Assembly (NCBI GenBank): GCA_025370845.1
Contig: JAMXFF010000012.1
Span: forward strand, 1-64,000
Length of the DNA stretch: 64,000 nucleotides
Reading direction: 5' to 3'
Source of the DNA: Laspinema palackyanum D2a
GTDB taxonomy: Bacteria > Cyanobacteriota > Cyanobacteriia > Cyanobacteriales > Laspinemataceae
Of the stretch, positions 28,376-35,988 are shown in pieces (positions within the stretch are counted from its first letter, which is position 1; each line of letters begins with the position of its first letter). The notes beneath the pieces were generated by a model. That model had not been told where the DNA came from and made no database searches. It saw only the letters and a program-made list of their open reading frames with translations. The position numbers and the translations under genes were made by a program.

Positions 28376-29905
28376 TTAAGCTTGTAGGACCTTTTGACCT
28401 TGGCAAGCTTGTTTTACGGGCAGTTCTATCCAAAATTCTGTCCCCTGCTCAGGGGTGGAAATACAGTGAATTTTACCCCCATGCTTTTCCACGACAATTT
28501 GATGACTAATGGACAACCCTAACCCGGTTCCTTTTCCGACAGGTTTGGTTGTAAAAAAGGGGTGAAATAGGGAGGAGAGGACCTCGGAACTCATGCCCGC
28601 GCCATTATCTGAAATTTGAATCACCACCCGTTCGCCCTCGCTGATGTGAGTGCGAATGTGAATTGTGGGAACAAACTCATCGGGACTGGAAAGGTCTGAG
28701 GATAGCACCTTAGATTCTTCTAAAGTCCACTCTTCGTTTCCCTCATCCCAATCTCCGCGTTTCATTTCCAACGCATCAATTGCATTTCCAATTAAATTCA
28801 TAAATACTTGATTGAGCTGACAGGGAAATCCTTCAACTGGGGTAATTTTTCCATAGTCTTTGACGATATTGATGGCGTTGCTTTTCCCATTGGCTTTGAG
28901 GCGATTTCGTAAAATTAAGAGGGTACTCTCGATGCCTTCATGAATATCAACTGGTTTCATGACGGCTTCATCTTTCCGGGAAAAATTCCGCAAAGATAGC
29001 ACTAACTGATGCATGGAATCCGACCCCACTTTAATCGAAGACAAAGTTTTGGGTAAATCATTTTTAATAAAATTAAAATCTACTTCTTCGAGATATTCAC
29101 CTAGCCTGGGGCTAGGATGGGGAGATTGTTGTTGATACAGTTCGATGATTTGTAGCAGTTCTTGAACATAGGCGATCGCATGATTGACATTGCCATAAAT
29201 AAAGCTCACGGGATTGTTCAGTTCATGGGCGACAGTGGCTAAAAGTTGGCCTAAACTGGACATTTTTTCACTTTGAATCAGGCGATCTTGGGCGTTTTCT
29301 AACTCCTTGAAGGCTTGTGCTAATTCATCGGCTTGGGACTGAGCCAGGGTCGCTGCAATCTGGCTTTGACGATAGAGTTCCGCTTGCTGACGGGCGATCG
29401 CCTCTTGTTGGCAGTTACTTTCTTCTTGATATTGACTGACGATGGCATCTAAGTCATCGAGCAACGGCCCACTTGCTGCATCCAGGATGTAACGCAGATG
29501 GGGATTGTCCCGGGTCAATTCCCCCTGATCCGAAGCGGCGATCGCCTGGTGAACTGCGGCAATATAGGCTGTAATTTTCCGATCCAAATCAATCGGAGGT
29601 TCAAAATACATGGATTTGACCGTTGCAGAGGGATGTCCTGGTAATTGCAAGGCGGCATCCCCATAGAGTAGCCCATGATGGGATTCTTCCATCAGAGTGA
29701 TGGTTTCTTGCAATGCCGAACGCCATTGTGTTCTCTCTTCTGGGGTCTCAGACCGTTCCAGTTGCAAGGCAAACAGGGCGGTGCGTTGAGATAGCATCCG
29801 CTGGCGACCACTGATATTGACTACTGCTGCATTAATTTCTCGCATAGTTTGGATCTCAGCCATCTGAAAACAGTTGGTCAAACCGAACACGGCTTTTGAC
29901 TCCAC
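28376..29905 (-). CDS. PilJ-domain histidine kinase
   Basis: 509 residues from a GTG; an ATG at 29863 (residue 15) is a possible alternative. Residues about 20-160 resemble the PilJ/NarX-type helical sensor module: INAAVVNISGRQRMLSQRTALFAL near the start and a second helical half near SGPLLDDLDAIV. There are no clear membrane segments, unlike PilJ chemoreceptors. A coiled coil (about 165-215) leads to a kinase core with H in VAHELNNPVSF, N-box MNLIGNAIDAL, G1 DNGAGMS and G2 GKGTGLGLS. It lacks a receiver domain and its partner regulator is unknown. The core is a close relative of those at 15046 and 30156. Type IV pilus or nitrate-type sensing is only a guess from the PilJ fold. Confidence 0.85.
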   Translation of the reverse strand: MESKAVFGLTNCFQMAEIQTMREINAAVVNISGRQRMLSQRTALFALQLERSETPEERTQWRSALQETITLMEESHHGLLYGDAALQLPGHPSATVKSMYFEPPIDLDRKITAYIAAVHQAIAASDQGELTRDNPHLRYILDAASGPLLDDLDAIVSQYQEESNCQQEAIARQQAELYRQSQIAATLAQSQADELAQAFKELENAQDRLIQSEKMSSLGQLLATVAHELNNPVSFIYGNVNHAIAYVQELLQIIELYQQQSPHPSPRLGEYLEEVDFNFIKNDLPKTLSSIKVGSDSMHQLVLSLRNFSRKDEAVMKPVDIHEGIESTLLILRNRLKANGKSNAINIVKDYGKITPVEGFPCQLNQVFMNLIGNAIDALEMKRGDWDEGNEEWTLEESKVLSSDLSSPDEFVPTIHIRTHISEGERVVIQISDNGAGMSSEVLSSLFHPFFTTKPVGKGTGLGLSISHQIVVEKHGGKIHCISTPEQGTEFWIELPVKQACQGQKVLQA

Positions 29906-30155
29906 ATCTCATAAATATCGCTTTTTTTCCCTAAATCTTTTTTAGGCCGATTCAGGGAATGAGTTTGTACTTGAAGTTACAGACTTTTCCTCCTCATGCT
30001 GTTTTTTGTGTTAATTTATGTATTTTTTACATAACTTTTGTTAAAATTTTTTAACCCCTAAAAAATCCTCAAACATCCCCGAGGCGATCGCACTTAAGTC
30101 CGGACCCTTGGGGAAATGACCTCGCGTTCTGGCCCTCCAGCAACTGCAAGGCGGA

Positions 30156-33077
30156 TTAACTGGCTCCCCCCATCAAAGATGGAATCGCATCGATCGCCGG
30201 ATCCGAGGCGCGCACTTTATCCCCTTGCCGGATGGGAATCACAATCCGAAACTCAGTCCCCTGACCCGGCTCCGATATACAAGAGATAGACCCCCCATGC
30301 CGTTCCACTACGATCTGATAGCTAATCGACAGTCCCAAACCCGTTCCTTTGCCTTCCGGTTTGGTCGTAAAAAAGGCTTCAAAGAGCTGCTGTCTGACTT
30401 CCGGTGTCATCCCGGGTCCATTATCCGCTACTCGAATGGCAACAGCCTCATCCCGCACAACTTCCGTGCGAATCCAAATCGTGGGCAGGGGTAATTGATA
30501 CACGGGAAGCGGAGATTGAGAAAAATCCAGGTCCGATAATGACATCTCGCTGGTTCCCCCTCCGGTTTTCTTCCCCTTACGATGACCATTCTCTAAGTGA
30601 TGTCCATTTCCCTCGGCAGAATTGTGGGTGTTCCATTTGCCTGTCATCTCTTCTAAGGCATCGATCGCATTCCCGATCGCATTCATAAAGACTTGATTGA
30701 GTTGACTCGGATAACATTCCACCAGGGGCAGCTCTCCAAACTGTTCAATCGTGGCGATCGCCCCGCAATAGGGATTTGCTTTCAGGCGGTGATGCAGAAT
30801 TAACAGGGTACTTTTCAACCCTTCGTGAATGTCGGTAACTTTCATCTCCCCGGTATCGGCGCGGGAGAAGTTTCGCAGCGATCGGGCCAATTCCCCAATC
30901 CGTTCCGCACCCACTCGCATAGAGGAAATCATTTGGGGCAGGTCTTCCAAGAGGTATTCCACTTCAATTTCCTCCCGGTAGGCGCGAATCTCATCGGGGG
31001 GTTCCCCATAGTATTTTTCGTAGAGTCCCAAGAGTTGCATCAACTCTTGGAGATACTTAGTCGCATAAGAGAGATTCCCATAGATAAAATTAACGGGATT
31101 ATTGATTTCGTGCGCGACTCCCGCGACTAAAGAGCCCAAACTGGATATTTTTTCGGTTTGGATCAGTTTGGCCTGGGTCTGTTTGAGTTCGTGCAGAGCA
31201 GTTTTGAGCTTGGCTGCTTGGGCATTAGCGGCAGTGGCGGTAATACAGCTTTGGTCATAGAGTTTGGCCTGATCGATGGCGATCGCAATTTGTATAGATA
31301 CATCTTGGAGTAACTCCACCTCACTTTCACTCCAAGGGTGAGTGGAACTGCCATGCAGACAGACCAGGGCCCCTTTTTGTCCGGAATGGGTTTGGACTGC
31401 TACGGCCAGTAACGAGCGGATAGAGCGCGCTTGTAACAGGTCGCGACTTTGGGGGTCAATGTGGCGATCGGCGATCGCGTCATCGAGTTGCAAGAGTTGA
31501 AGCTGTTGCAGAGCCTTCCCCAGAGCGGGAATTTCTGCTAGAGGGTTATCTGTACAATCCTGGGGCTGCTTGGGGTCTCGCGCTTCCTGACTCGGTTCGT
31601 AATGGGGCGGATTGGAGTCAGTATTATACCATAAAAACTGACAGCGGTCAATGGAAAGGAGATGGCGAATTTCGCTGACGGCGGTTTTTAAAATGGTGTC
31701 AATATTTAATGAGGTATGAATTTGACTAGAGAGGCGGCGCTTGAGGAGTTCCACCCGCGATCGCAGTTCTCGAAACCGGGTTTCCGAGGCCATCAGTTCC
31801 TGTTGAGTGCGTTCCAATCGTTCATTTGTAGCTTTAACTTCCGCCATTGCCATCTCCAATTGACGGGATTTTTCTTCCATTTGGCAACTATATTGAATCG
31901 CCTGGGACACCTCCCCCAACATCTCGATCGCCACCGCAGAGACACTCCCACTCACAGTTTCTATCCCCAACCAAGGCAGAGGGGCGATCGCATGAGGCGT
32001 TTCCCAGACAATTTTAAACTGTCCATTCGGTAAAACTTCTCCGATTCGACAGGTTTTGCAGATATGATTATTCGCCTCAATCCGCACCAATCCCCCCGGT
32101 GATTCAAAGGTTTGATTGTAGGCCGCTTTTCTCACCTGTTCTACATCAAAGGTTCCTGCTTTTTCTACAGATTGTTTCCATAAATAAACTTGGGTATAAG
32201 CCGCTTCAATTGGGTCACTGGTTACCCGGTTTTTGCCATAACGGGCCTGAAAATTTTTTACAAATTCTTGATTTTGGGGCGTATTAACACTTTGAAAATA
32301 ACTCCAGGTGGCATAATGTCCCGTTGCTGCATCCCCAATGCGGCGCACTTCATCCTCCGCCACACTAACGGCCAGAATAGGAATCTGGGCTGCGGTAATT
32401 CCTGCTTCTCGATATTGGTGATAAAAGGCGATATTGCTATCCCCATTTAAAGTGTTAAATACTAAATCCGCTTGACTCCCTTGAATCCGAGGGATGATCT
32501 CTCGAAAGTCTTGTTCCCCTAACAAGAGGTATTCTTCTCCCACAATTTCTCCGCCTTGTTGTTTGAGATGAGCGCGGATAATTTTGTTAATTGTCCGGGG
32601 AAATACATAGTTAGAGCCAATTAAGTAGATGCGCTTGCCTTTATTGGCGACTGCCCAAGTGAGGGCCGGTTCCACCTGCTGATTCGGACAGATGCCGGTG
32701 TAGAAAATGTGCGGGGAAGATTCGAGTCCTTCATATTCTACCGGATACCAGAGTTGGGCATTAAACTCCTCTAAAACCGGGAGAACGGCTTTGCGAGAGG
32801 CGGAAGACCATCCCCCAAAAATCGTCACCACTTGGTCCTGTTGGATGAGCTTGCGAGCTTTTTGAGCGAATTCGGCAGGTAAAGATGCTCCATCTTCAAT
32901 CACGGGTTCTATGGGTTTTCCCAGTACACCTCCAGCAGCATTAATTTCGGCGATCGCCATCAGTTCCGCATCTTTGAGGGATGCTTCTCCAATTGCCATC
33001 GTCCCACTTAGGGAGTGCAATATTCCCACTTTGACACTGGACTCGCATCGGTTCCCGGTCTCGCTCGTTTTACTCAT
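30156..33077 (-). CDS. UrtA-like substrate-binding domain fused to GAF-histidine kinase
   Basis: 973 residues from ATG 33077; an in-frame TTG at 33170 would add 31 polar residues. Neither form has a signal peptide. Residues about 15-380 form a Peripla_BP_6 fold very like the urea/short-chain amide binding protein UrtA: GILHSLSGTMAIGE, AEINAAGGVLGKPIEP, FGGWSSASRKAVLPV, LWYPVEYEG, YLIGSNYVFPRT, DPIEAAYTQVYLW and NNHICKTCRIGE. A coiled coil, a GAF domain (about 455-600) and a kinase core follow (AHEINNPVNF, NAIGNAIDAL, DNGPGMT, GKGTGLGLS). No membrane segment is visible. The ligand domain therefore appears to be cytoplasmic, reporting intracellular urea, amides or a related metabolite. The ligand is inferred from family only. 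Confidence 0.88.
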   Translation of the reverse strand: MSKTSETGNRCESSVKVGILHSLSGTMAIGEASLKDAELMAIAEINAAGGVLGKPIEPVIEDGASLPAEFAQKARKLIQQDQVVTIFGGWSSASRKAVLPVLEEFNAQLWYPVEYEGLESSPHIFYTGICPNQQVEPALTWAVANKGKRIYLIGSNYVFPRTINKIIRAHLKQQGGEIVGEEYLLLGEQDFREIIPRIQGSQADLVFNTLNGDSNIAFYHQYREAGITAAQIPILAVSVAEDEVRRIGDAATGHYATWSYFQSVNTPQNQEFVKNFQARYGKNRVTSDPIEAAYTQVYLWKQSVEKAGTFDVEQVRKAAYNQTFESPGGLVRIEANNHICKTCRIGEVLPNGQFKIVWETPHAIAPLPWLGIETVSGSVSAVAIEMLGEVSQAIQYSCQMEEKSRQLEMAMAEVKATNERLERTQQELMASETRFRELRSRVELLKRRLSSQIHTSLNIDTILKTAVSEIRHLLSIDRCQFLWYNTDSNPPHYEPSQEARDPKQPQDCTDNPLAEIPALGKALQQLQLLQLDDAIADRHIDPQSRDLLQARSIRSLLAVAVQTHSGQKGALVCLHGSSTHPWSESEVELLQDVSIQIAIAIDQAKLYDQSCITATAANAQAAKLKTALHELKQTQAKLIQTEKISSLGSLVAGVAHEINNPVNFIYGNLSYATKYLQELMQLLGLYEKYYGEPPDEIRAYREEIEVEYLLEDLPQMISSMRVGAERIGELARSLRNFSRADTGEMKVTDIHEGLKSTLLILHHRLKANPYCGAIATIEQFGELPLVECYPSQLNQVFMNAIGNAIDALEEMTGKWNTHNSAEGNGHHLENGHRKGKKTGGGTSEMSLSDLDFSQSPLPVYQLPLPTIWIRTEVVRDEAVAIRVADNGPGMTPEVRQQLFEAFFTTKPEGKGTGLGLSISYQIVVERHGGSISCISEPGQGTEFRIVIPIRQGDKVRASDPAIDAIPSLMGGAS

Positions 33078-33336
33078 GGCTGACTCTTCAAACACCTCGA
33101 TGTTCTGGACTAGGCCGCGACTGCTTGAGGCGGCTTTTATTTGCTTGTTGCTGGCGCTCCCTTGACTCAAAATTGGCCGGATTGACTAAGAAAACCTCTT
33201 TGTGTTTGCCTGAAAATCCCCTCGGGGCTTTTGTTAGATATTTCTTTCCTCTGGCAATTAGACTTTCTCCTCCCCTGCGGTCTTTTTCTGCACCTGACTG
33301 GTTTAAGTTTTATCAACCTCTCTCGATAAATTTACT

Positions 33337-33372
33337 GAAGTTGATGTCAACTTTGGGTCAACTTCAATCAAC
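33337..33372. promoter_or_regulatory. Phased TCAAC repeats and inverted repeat upstream of the UrtA-kinase gene
   Basis: TCAAC starts at 33347, 33358 and 33368 (spacing 11 and 10 bp), with an inverted GTTGA at 33340. GAAGTTGA/TCAACTTC arms pair at 33337-33344 and 33358-33365. Same-face direct repeats of this kind often bind response regulators. The site is 170-290 bp upstream of the possible start codons. Confidence 0.4.
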
Positions 33373-33728
33373 TCCCCTTTGCCTAGGACTGAAGGATGCG
33401 ATCGCTACTGAAAATAGTTTAAATACACCCCGAACAGCCTCGAAGGAGAAACAATCTGATGCTGATGTTTTTATTTTACATAATTTTATCAAGTTTTTGC
33501 CCCCAGTTTTGGGCAGGGTTCCAATTCAGGTCCCGATTTTTGTCAGGTTTCTGTTCCCGGATATTTTGGGGGATTTTTAACAATTTTTTCAGGTTTTAGG
33601 GACAGGAAACCGTAACCATTTATACCCTTTATCAAAACTTATAAAACCCTCACTCAAAAAACTCACCCTTGAGGGGAATAGATTGAATGTTTGAACCCCA
33701 TTAAGCGCCAGAGTGCTGGTTTTTGGAA

Positions 33729-33764
33729 GGGGAGGATGGGGGAGATGGGGAGGATGGGGAGGAT
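33729..33764 (+). repeat. G-rich minisatellite, left arm of composite element
   Basis: Four 9-mers of the GGGGAGGAT type directly precede the terminal repeat of the element at 33765. The complementary array follows on the other side at 33969-34037. Confidence 0.85.
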
Positions 33765-33936
33765 GTTTGTAGTAACGACTTCAGTCGTTGCTCTCGTGTC
33801 ATGGCGATCGCCATGACACGCACCATAAGCGGCTTAAGCTCCAGTGCCCACACAAGCAGGTGGTAGAGCCTACAATTGCTCCTGTTATGGCTTAAGCCAT
33901 AACAGGAGAGCAACGACTAAAGTCGTTACTACGAAC
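33765..33936. mobile_element. MITE-like inverted-repeat element, 172 bp
   Basis: Ends GTTTGTAGTAACGACT and its inverted copy match the 248-bp element at 4013-4260. The inside holds two further palindromes, GTGTCATGGC/GCCATGACAC (about 33797-33820) and a longer one centred near 33896 (CTTAAG centre). No coding capacity. Confidence 0.75.
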
Positions 33937-33968
33937 AGGAAGAAACGACTTGCTGTCGGGACATTGAG

Positions 33969-34037
33969 CATCCTCCCCATCTCCCCCATCCTCCCCATCC
34001 TCCCCATCTCCCCCATCTCCCCCATCCTCCCCATCCA
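33969..34037 (-). repeat. G-rich minisatellite, coding-strand copy after the CHASE-cyclase stop
   Basis: About seven 9-mers read as ATCCTCCCC/ATCTCCCCC on the plus strand. On the minus strand, the sense strand of the cyclase gene, they are G-rich and begin about 20 nt after its stop codon. Confidence 0.85.
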
Positions 34038-34056
34038 CTAAGGACAGTAGAGGGTT

Positions 34057-35988
34057 TCAAACCTCTTCCTCGAAGGGAAGCTCAAAGAGGGGCTTGCAGA
34101 TGCCCTCTTGTTTTCTGCCGGTGAGGAGATAGACGAGCATTTCCCCCTTTCCTTTGATGGGGATAGGGCCTCGGCACTCGAAGCAGTAGCTAGACTGTAG
34201 AAGGGAGTAGGTCGTACTAGAGACCTGAATGCGTCCGGGAACCCCGTGAGATTCCATGCGAGAGGCAATGTTCACCGTATCCCCCCAGAGATCGTAGATA
34301 AACTTGTGAGTTCCGATCACCCCAGCGATCGCAGGTCCAGAATGAATGCCAATCCGCATGGCAAAAGATTCGTGACATTTCCGATTAAAATGCAGAATTT
34401 CTATTTGCATATCCAGGGCCATTTCTGCGATCGCAGAAGCATGATTGTGGCGTTGCACCGGCAGACCCCCGACCACCATATAGGCATCCCCAATCGTTTT
34501 AATTTTCTCTAACCCGTGTTTTTCCGCGAGACGGTCAAATATGGTAAAGATTTCATTGAGCAGTTGCACCAATTCCGTCGGGGAAATCCTTGCCGCTAAC
34601 TTAGTAAAGCCGACAATATCGGCAAATAAGACCGTCACTTCCGGAAAACTTTCGGCAATGGTTTGGGTATCCTCTTTGAGACGTTCAGCGATCGCCTTGG
34701 GCAAAACGTTCAGCAATAGGCGCTCCGACTTAGCTTGTTCCACCTCCAATTGCTTAAATGCTTGCTGCAACTGGGCCGCTTGTTCCTCACGGGCTAAGGC
34801 TAAAGCTTCAATTTCAGCGGTCCGAGAGACTGAAGTCAGCAGATAGGTGACGGGAATATGTGTCCACAAAAAGCCAATAATCAGCACCGCCCAAGAACGC
34901 CAATGCCTGCGCGATGCATGATATTCATCCGTGGGCCAGATATAGAATGCCCAAATCCGGCCATTCACCTTGATTTCTCGCCGGATCGCACCTTCGTTCC
35001 TGTTAGCGATTATGACCGCACCCCCGCGATTGCGCTGATTCTCTAGGGGTTTGAGGGGACATTCCGAGGGCACATCCAGAACAAAGGGTTCCGTGGCACT
35101 ATTCGAGGTGACGAGTTCCGTGGATTCAAGTAAAGTGAGCAAGGGATAGGGTTGACGGGAATCCGGGGGAGTCCCTGTTCCTGGGGTTTCATCGCATAGG
35201 TACAAGTTGAACTGGTTGCCTCTGGCTCCAGCGAGTTGAAACAGATTATCCACCTCCACCCAACCTAAGACAAAGCCGAGCAAGGGTTTCACGGCTTCCG
35301 AACTGGGTTCGGGGTCCTGAGCGAGGGTAAAGCGCGTGGGGATACCCTGCTCGTAGACGGGGTGAACCGCTAAAAATCCCAGTTGCGATCGCGAACCCAC
35401 TTGCCACTCTAGCCGCTCACTGACCACCAATTCCCTCATCTGTGCCGCTCGTTTCAGTACCGCTTGGTAGGTGGGATTGGCGGCGAGATCTAAGCCGGGG
35501 GTATTGGGGTTTTCCGGGAGGGGGGCAATATAGGAGATGGGAAAGTATTCCGCAAGGCGATCGCGCTGGACGAAACGGCCTGGGGTGAGCGGTTGTGTAA
35601 TCGTAAAATTCCTATCCCCTTCAATCGCCATGCGCTCCTCGTAATCGTCGCGATCGGCATCCTCTACCCGCTCAACCCAGGCAACGAGAGACACGGTAGA
35701 AGGGTTTGATAGGGGACGTTGCACGAACTGCTCAAAGGAGTCGAGATCGACAGTTTGCGAGGATTGAAAGAAGTCTGTAATCGTGCGAATGACTTCCAAG
35801 TCAGCGTCTAGTTGCTGCTGCAATCGGCCCGTTAAACCGTCAATGCTGCGACTTAATTCATAGTCTCGTCGCCGATTTTCCCACTCCCATACCACCGTGA
35901 ATCCGATTACAGACAGTCCAACCCCCATTCCAAAGATGATGGCAGCAGGAAGATAGCGACTCCAGGGTATTTTCGGCTTTTTTGGCAT
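34057..35988 (-). CDS. CHASE-domain membrane adenylate cyclase
   Basis: 643 residues from ATG 35988. The frame is open 56 codons further upstream, but that part has no membrane-protein character and the first membrane segment begins right after this ATG. TM1 lies at about 12-34 ([17 protein letters not shown]). An extracytoplasmic CHASE domain follows (about 50-330; [25 protein letters not shown]). TM2 is at about 365-388 and a coiled coil leads to a class III cyclase domain ([29 protein letters not shown]). The Lys and Asp substrate-specifying residues point to ATP. CHASE domains bind small external signals; the ligand is unknown. It is the second cyclase of the window, sharing [16 protein letters not shown]-type linker sequence with the receiver-cyclase. 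Confidence 0.92.

What the first reader, a model, noticed from the sequence alone, without database searches (positions are those of the whole stretch)
30156..33077. UrtA-like ligand-binding domain placed in the cytoplasm and fused to a GAF-histidine kinase
The N-terminal about 365 residues look like a complete urea/amide substrate-binding protein, but there is no signal peptide and no membrane segment between it and the kinase. A periplasmic-type receptor used inside the cell would sense an intracellular nitrogen metabolite such as urea or a short amide, an unusual arrangement. Phased TCAAC repeats upstream suggest regulated expression.
Basis: partly seen in the sequence, partly recalled or inferred. 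Interest (0 to 1): 0.75.

Follow-up and report, generated by a model that had tools for sequence, protein, structure and literature searches.

The report
Cytoplasmic urea-type receptor histidine kinase
A cyanobacterial signalling protein carries, inside the cell, the same kind of clam-shaped binding domain that other proteins use outside the cell to catch urea, and related proteins wire that domain to several different signalling outputs, so these bacteria may measure urea or a look-alike inside the cell.

Summary
Observation confirmed. Gene 30156-33077(-) encodes 973 aa: a complete UrtA-type domain (TIGR03407 above cut-off), helical linker, GAF, HisKA and HATPase, without signal peptide or membrane segment. 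It is present in 8 of 8 genomes of its genus.

It belongs to a wider set. I collected 39 distinct soluble, signal-less UrtA-type proteins (8 of them genus orthologues), all from cyanobacteria: kinases, adenylate cyclases, diguanylate cyclases, SpoIIE phosphatases. Another lineage is UrtA-2TM-HAMP-kinase (12). A hydrophobic N-terminus is present in 96 of 96 exported UrtAs and 0 of 51 fusions.

The pocket is urea-type, not AmiC-type. Eight of nine urea-site residues are kept; the change, Gln144 to Glu, marks one clade (14 of 38 soluble domains). The binding domain has the lowest dN/dS of four segments (0.074), so it is hardly a dead scaffold.

Best reading: a soluble kinase gated by intracellular urea or a close isostere. 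Cytoplasmic location and pocket integrity rest on sequence; ligand, sign of response and partner regulator are inferred. The TCAAC repeats are not conserved (three copies in 2 of 8 genomes). AmiC is a precedent for an intracellular flytrap and BvgS for a flytrap kinase; the combination and its modular spread make a new variant.

The parts
30156..33077 (-). Whole gene: UrtA-type domain + helical linker + GAF + histidine kinase, 973 aa, ATG start
   Evidence: full-length matches in 8 of 8 genus genomes, the other seven 92-98% identical
31965..33035 (-). UrtA-type substrate-binding domain (residues 15-371)
   Evidence: PF13433 3.6e-151 and TIGR03407 above cut-off; AF2 model pLDDT 91.3, pTM 0.90; fold matches 1-6 are urea-binding proteins 8tg1, 7s6e, 8hic, 7s6f, matches 7-10 AmiC
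32736..32738 (-). Codon of Glu114, at the place of UrtA Gln144 that hydrogen-bonds urea; the only changed residue of the nine around urea
   Evidence: Glu in 14 of 38 soluble fusions, Gln in 96 of 96 exported UrtAs
32364..32810 (-). Span holding the kept pocket residues W90, S92, Y111, E116, Y157, F159, N211, S238 (UrtA W120, S122, Y141, E146, Y190, F192, N246, S274)
31713..31940 (-). Linker, residues 380-455, with weak coiled-coil periodicity
   Evidence: heptad a/d hydrophobicity of residues 381-455 reached by 19 of 2000 shuffles; helix 381-455 in the low-confidence full-length model
31275..31703 (-). GAF domain (residues 459-601)
   Evidence: PF01590 1e-15
31056..31139 (-). HisKA (residues 647-674) with phospho-acceptor His656 in GVAHEINNP
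   Evidence: PF00512 6.2e-07; motif position; His656 invariant in 13 aligned fusions
30228..30485 (-). HATPase_c (residues 865-950) with DNGPGM and GTGLGLSIS boxes
   Evidence: PF02518 1e-24; motifs
33347..33372 (.).
   Evidence: positions; the three copies occur in 2 of 8 genus genomes
33612..33625 (.). GTAN8TAC (NtcA-type) box in a conserved block, 548 bases upstream of the ATG; a lead only
   Evidence: present in 8 of 8 genus genomes (alignment); no well placed -10 seen by eye

Best explanation
It is a soluble cytoplasmic sensor histidine kinase whose N-terminal Venus-flytrap domain is a UrtA-type urea-binding domain kept inside the cell. Urea, or a very close isostere, present in the cell closes the two lobes on the pocket. 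The closure is passed through the 380-455 helix and the GAF domain to the HisKA/HATPase core and changes autophosphorylation of His656. The phosphate goes to a response regulator that is not encoded beside it. Shown by sequence: domain content, absence of export signal and membrane segments, pocket conservation, intact kinase motifs, purifying selection, spread of the domain to other outputs. Inferred: ligand identity, direction of the response, coupling path, partner regulator and target genes. Gln144 to Glu in this clade probably tunes affinity or shifts the ligand, for example toward a more basic urea analogue.
For: Urea-type family assignment above cut-off. Closest solved relatives are urea-binding proteins. 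Eight of nine residues around urea kept. Pocket columns more conserved than the domain average in 38 soluble fusions, mean 0.89 against 0.72. The binding domain has the lowest dN/dS of the four segments measured: 0.074, against linker 0.166, GAF 0.137, kinase 0.088, over 28 pairs of 8 genomes. N-terminal hydropathy separates 96 exported UrtAs (lowest 1.29) from 39 soluble and 12 membrane fusions (highest 1.00, the next 0.51). The same domain heads kinase, cyclase, GGDEF and SpoIIE outputs, as expected of an input module. The own genome holds urease and a separate exported UrtA beside ureG, so urea in the cytoplasm is expected.
Against: No binding data. The changed residue, Glu for Gln144, is one of the four that hydrogen-bond urea in Prochlorococcus UrtA, where mutating any of the four weakened or abolished binding (passage); the effect of Glu is unknown. 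No urea genes were recognised by eye beside the fusions in five other genera. Urease in 20 of 20 fusion genomes is uninformative, because 140 of 148 genomes of the order have it. Eight of 38 soluble relatives have other pocket changes. The full-length model is poor, pLDDT 57.4, so the coupling path is unsupported.
Confidence: 0.6

Rival explanations
1. The Glu144 clade has switched ligand: it senses a cationic or otherwise different small nitrogen compound (guanidinium, a substituted urea, an aminated amide) rather than urea.
For: Gln to Glu at a residue whose side chain contacts one urea nitrogen (its main chain the other). The 14 Glu rows form one clade (support 98/92); Glu is absent from 96 exported UrtAs and 12 membrane fusions.
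Against: Ser92 (main-chain NH) and Tyr157, at the places that donate to the urea oxygen in UrtA, are kept, which favours a ligand with C=O. The own genome has no PF00491 ureohydrolase, the family to which I recall guanidine hydrolase belonging.
Confidence: 0.25
2. The domain is a degenerate scaffold or dimerisation module without ligand.
For: Some relatives do have heavily changed pockets: L037, L095, L090/L091/L097, and the membrane fusion L096.
Against: The window protein keeps 8 of 9 residues; dN/dS 0.074; 16 of 38 soluble domains keep all nine and 14 more differ only at 144.
Confidence: 0.08
3. The sensor works through protein contact, for example with the cytoplasmic side of the urea transporter or with PII, rather than through free ligand.
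For: Family-wide changes away from UrtA outside the nine residues (F254Y 37 of 38, S272A 36 of 38). PII is reported to bind UrtE (PMC6603209, passages).
Against: A conserved ligand pocket is not needed for that; no partner was identified.
Confidence: 0.05
4. Missed export: a real start further upstream adds a signal, and the domain is periplasmic.
For: None found.
Against: The open frame is 1009 aa, 36 codons above the ATG, with no hydrophobic stretch from the first possible start. A periplasmic domain would need a membrane crossing before the ATP-using kinase, and none is seen.
Confidence: 0.02

Closest known systems
UrtA, periplasmic urea-binding protein of UrtABCDE (8hic, 7s6e, 7s6f; 8tg1 from Caldicellulosiruptor)
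   Same: Domain family, fold, 8 of 9 residues around urea
   Different: No export signal, fused to a kinase, Gln144 replaced by Glu, no transporter gene recognised beside it
AmiC/AmiR of Pseudomonas (1pea, 1qnl, 1qo0)
   Same: Next nearest fold; a flytrap receptor that gates an antitermination factor: acetamide binding releases AmiR (PMC5259723, passages). That this happens in the cytoplasm follows from AmiR's role
   Different: Separate proteins, antiterminator output, Tyr/Pro/Val where this protein has Trp/Glu/Asn
BvgS-type kinases with Venus-flytrap domains
   Same: Flytrap domain controlling a histidine kinase (PMC8534201, passages)
   Different: In BvgS the flytraps are periplasmic; here everything is cytoplasmic. 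The same review names PAS or GAF as the usual cytoplasmic sensing domains (passage)
FixL, a soluble cytoplasmic kinase
   Same: No membrane segments; N-terminal sensor joined to the kinase by a coiled coil (PMC8534201, passages)
   Different: PAS-heme sensor instead of a flytrap

Membership tests
UrtA (TIGR03407) | Score above the curated cut-off | tested here: met
   511.9 against 492.75 bits; the own-genome exported UrtA scores 611.2
UrtA (TIGR03407) | Export signal (hydrophobic N-terminus with Tat- or lipobox-like motif) | tested here: not met
   absent here; present in 96 of 96 exported UrtAs
UrtA (TIGR03407) | All nine residues around urea | tested here: not met
   8 of 9; Gln144 is Glu
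UrtA (TIGR03407) | Linked urtBCDE or urease genes | tested here: not met
   The five large neighbouring ORFs from 17.5 to 39.4 kb are signalling proteins by Pfam; smaller ORFs were not scanned. The UrtA next to ureG lies on another contig
UrtA (TIGR03407) | Binds urea | not testable with these tools
   needs protein
AmiC | Peripla_BP_5 fold without export signal | tested here: met
   (that AmiC itself has no signal is recalled)
AmiC | AmiC pocket residues | tested here: not met
   Trp, Glu, Asn in place of Tyr, Pro, Val
AmiC | AmiR-like (ANTAR) partner | tested here: inconclusive
   no ANTAR match in the own genome, but none in the 14 control genomes either
Orthodox sensor histidine kinase | HisKA His and N, G1, G2 boxes | tested here: met
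   His656, MNAIGNAID, VADNGPGM, GKGTGLGLSIS
BvgS-type flytrap kinase | Flytrap separated from the kinase by a membrane segment | tested here: not met
   no membrane segment

The most novel reading that the evidence does not exclude
Cyanobacteria use the UrtA receptor turned inward, in two separate lineages, as an interchangeable intracellular urea (or ureide) input for phosphorelay, cAMP, c-di-GMP and SpoIIE-type phosphatase outputs; the window's clade, with Glu144, reads a second, distinct nitrogen compound.
Probability: 0.3. Interest if true: 0.75.

Novelty: new variant of a known kind. Interest (0 to 1): 0.57.

Why it matters
Cyanobacterial urea uptake is reported to be controlled through NtcA and PII (PMC6737895 and PMC6603209, passages); the paper listings that I saw (20 of 76, 1 of 1 and 20 of 538 papers) named no direct sensor of intracellular urea in bacteria. 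A modular family with a mostly complete urea pocket on kinase, cyclase, GGDEF and phosphatase outputs makes such sensing directly testable, and would supply natural cytoplasmic urea-responsive switches. The single fixed Gln to Glu change gives a clean test of how one residue sets ligand choice.

Tried and rejected
TCAAC repeats as a conserved operator: rejected; the three copies stand in 2 of 8 genomes. TCAAC as a word is not strikingly enriched in the window (144 against 124.5, sd 11.5; 6 of 100 shuffles reach it).

Urease co-occurrence: 20 of 20 fusion genomes, but 140 of 148 genomes of the order, so no association claimed.

Gene neighbourhood of five other soluble fusions (read by eye; two ORFs Pfam-scanned): no urea genes recognised. 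Two things could matter. In L051 a lone receiver protein (PF00072, 2.7e-17) lies 464 bases upstream of the fusion on the same strand. In L052 a PilJ-GAF-kinase lies upstream of the fusion, and a PilJ-kinase is also next to the window's fusion.

NtcA-type boxes: GTAN8TAC is not enriched in the window (2 against 4.57, sd 2.25). The box upstream of this gene is present in 8 of 8 genomes, but no well placed -10 was seen. In 14 other fusion genes a box lies within 700 bases upstream in 4 (L053, L086, L090, L047), where the window's shuffled rate would give about 0.7; this is not corrected for local composition or for upstream coding DNA. That GTAN8TAC is the NtcA consensus is recalled, not from a call. 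Kept as a lead.

ANTAR (AmiR-like) search of the own genome: no match, but the 14 controls were silent too, so it says nothing.

Rfam on 32900-34200: only below-threshold MIR408 matches in CCCCATC repeats, taken as artefact.

Full-length AF2 model: pLDDT 57.4, not used for mechanism.

Literature: 10 searches. I saw listings of 20 of 76, 1 of 1, 1 of 1, 20 of 538, 1 of 1, 3 of 3, 10 of 106, 12 of 36, 12 of 20 and 8 of 126 papers (titles and starts of abstracts), and passages of seven papers. None described this fusion; lists were cut and the library is open-access only, so this does not show that none exists.

Counting faults found and handled: the first N-terminal script mis-set the domain start for 4 fusions and used a stricter hydropathy cut-off (1.5 over 12 residues) that only 11 of 37 exported UrtAs passed; one search used 1.0 over 15 residues, chosen. 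The values show the gap: UrtAs 1.29 and above; fusions 0.51 and below except L120 at 1.00, whose value comes from a Leu-codon start ahead of an in-frame Met. One fusion (L009, TTG form) matched the RR pattern. L087 (adenylate-cyclase fusion, G384) was left out, because its truncated copy L066 had stood for it and was then excluded; its pocket is complete (as L066) and its N-terminus was added. Counts of 38 are therefore 38 of 39.
Full report
What is there. The gene at 30156-33077 on the minus strand encodes 973 residues from ATG, or 1004 from an upstream TTG. Pfam finds Peripla_BP_5 (3.6e-151), GAF (1e-15), HisKA (6.2e-07) and HATPase_c (1e-24). NCBIfam places the N-terminal domain in TIGR03407, the urea ABC transporter substrate-binding protein, above its cut-off (511.9 against 492.75 bits). 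The kinase motifs are intact, with His656 in GVAHEINNP and the N, G1 and G2 boxes. The AlphaFold2 model of the domain is confident (pLDDT 91.3, pTM 0.90). Its fold matches 1-6 are the urea-binding proteins 8tg1, 7s6e, 8hic and 7s6f; matches 7-10 are AmiC.

Location. No 19-residue window in the protein reaches a mean hydropathy of 1.6. Ahead of the domain, all 96 exported UrtAs collected have a hydrophobic stretch (15-residue mean 1.29 or more) and a lipobox- or RR-like motif. The 39 soluble and 12 membrane fusions stay at 0.51 or below, except L120 at 1.00 by a doubtful Leu-codon start; one fusion matched the RR pattern. In four of eight genus genomes the frame holds no start codon as far up as the TTG, which favours the ATG. 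By sequence the protein is cytoplasmic.

The pocket. The Prochlorococcus UrtA-urea paper names nine residues around urea: W120, S122, Y141, Q144, E146, Y190, F192, N246 and S274; S122, Q144, Y190 and N246 make the hydrogen bonds (PMC10392092, passages). The window protein keeps eight of the nine; Q144 is Glu114. AmiC has Tyr, Pro and Val where the window has W90, E114 and N211 (alignment), so the pocket is of the urea type. All 96 exported UrtAs have all nine residues. So do 11 of 12 membrane fusions and 16 of 38 soluble fusions; 14 more soluble fusions differ only at 144, and eight differ otherwise. Pocket columns are more conserved than the domain average in the soluble set (0.89 against 0.72). 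Across the eight genus genomes the binding domain has the lowest dN/dS of four segments (0.074 over 28 pairs; linker 0.166, GAF 0.137, kinase 0.088).

Relatives. All eight genomes of the genus carry this protein. All eight also have a second match of 832-864 aa; in the four that were opened (own, G004, G005, G007) it is UrtA-2TM-HAMP-kinase, with HAMP confirmed by Pfam in the own genome's copy. The own genome also has an exported UrtA, 611.2 bits in TIGR03407, beside ureG. These are lower bounds. I count 39 distinct soluble signal-less proteins, eight of them genus orthologues. By a simple BLAST rule, with Pfam scans of 15 of them, they are 20 GAF-kinases, 4 other kinases, 9 adenylate cyclases with PAS or GAF, 3 diguanylate cyclases, 2 SpoIIE phosphatases (L117, L119), and one GAF-PAS protein without a recognised output (L114). 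All are cyanobacterial, but looked only inside the phylum, open to all phyla, 21 of the 80 kept loci are fusions, all with cyanobacterial titles, and the other 59, mostly Firmicutes, are of UrtA length. Planktothrix rubescens PCC7821 (L118) carries the diguanylate-cyclase fusion; its protein equals L089.

Tree. In an 83-row tree (38 soluble, 12 membrane, 32 of 96 UrtAs taken every third, AmiC) one branch with 100/100 support separates UrtAs plus membrane fusions from all soluble fusions and AmiC. Membrane fusions are one clade (100/100) inside the UrtA side. The root is unsure: AmiC is a very long branch and the soluble rows form an unresolved fan, so whether the soluble fusions are a clade or a grade, and which way export was lost or gained there, is open. 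All 14 Glu144 rows form one clade (98/92): the eight genus members, L053, L101, L102, L103, L106 and L109. One change kept across several genera speaks for function. Soluble fusions also share changes away from UrtA outside the nine residues, such as F254Y (37 of 38) and S272A (36 of 38).

Membrane fusions. They have no signal ahead of the domain and, in my reading of the hydropathy scan, two segments between it and HAMP (in some, overlapping windows list a third). Pfam confirms HAMP in the four scanned (L096, L047, L055, L057). An even number of crossings puts their UrtA-type domain in the cytoplasm too. They arise within the exported UrtAs, apart from the soluble fusions.

Context and regulation. 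No response regulator gene is recognised beside the window gene. Its large neighbours are signalling proteins: a PilJ-kinase (28376-29905, present downstream in 8 of 8 genus genomes), a CHASE-cyclase, a GGDEF-EAL protein, a PP2C protein and a large hybrid kinase. In one relative (L051) a lone receiver protein lies 464 bases from the fusion, and in L052 a PilJ-GAF-kinase lies next to it. The TCAAC repeats are not conserved. The only two GTAN8TAC sites in 64 kb (4.57 expected) lie upstream of this gene and of the PilJ-kinase, and a box is present at both places in 8 of 8 genomes. That NtcA-type link was noticed after the fact and is a lead only. The own genome has urease and no PF00491 ureohydrolase match.

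Mechanism. By analogy with flytrap receptors, the ligand closes the two lobes, and the linker helix carries the change through GAF to the kinase. This step is inferred; the full-length model is too weak to support it (pLDDT 57.4). In UrtA the oxygen of urea is held by the Ser122 main chain and Tyr190, and its nitrogens by Gln144, Asn246 and Ser122. A Glu side chain at 144 can still accept from a nitrogen, so urea remains the first candidate. A more basic analogue is the main alternative.

Known and new. AmiC is a known flytrap receptor that gates an antitermination factor (PMC5259723, passages). BvgS is a known kinase with periplasmic flytraps (PMC8534201, passages). What appears new is a urea-type flytrap used as a cytoplasmic, swappable input for kinases, cyclases and phosphatases. 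Ten literature searches showed no description of it in the listings seen, which were cut, in an open-access library. I rate it a new variant of a known kind.

Noticed in passing
window 29967-29980: GTAN8TAC box followed after 22 bases by TAAAAA (reading toward the gene), between this gene and the downstream PilJ-kinase; a box is present in 8 of 8 genus genomes inside a strongly conserved promoter-like block. Suggests NtcA control of the PilJ-kinase.
   Followed up: partly
window 33400-33650: Two conserved intergenic blocks upstream of the gene (around GTATAAATGGTTAC and around AAAATTATGTAAAATAAAAACAT) of unknown function in 8 genus genomes.
   Followed up: partly
L128 3576-7411 and L159 3648-7441: In Sporomusa a hybrid kinase (HisKA, HATPase, receiver, Hpt) and a receiver-AraC regulator sit just upstream of urtABCDE and a urease beta gene: a likely dedicated two-component system for urea uptake. 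Desulfosporosinus L159 looks the same by eye. L129, L132, L142, L150 and L161 show similar match spacing but were not opened.
   Followed up: partly
L090, L091, L097, L095, L037, L096: UrtA-type fusions with altered pockets (Pro, Ser, Phe or Tyr at 144, with changes at 190 or 246 in most), likely sensing something else or nothing.
   Followed up: no
L114 4968-7622: UrtA-GAF-PAS protein without output domain, close kin of the kinase L112; may be a broken or truncated gene.
   Followed up: no
L055 2864-5737 and L057 8200-11151: Two membrane UrtA-HAMP kinases carry an extra C-terminal receiver domain, which the own-genome copy lacks.
   Followed up: no
window 33726-34027: CCCCATC/GGATGGGG repeats and palindromes between this gene and the CHASE-cyclase gene; give spurious miRNA matches.
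   Followed up: no
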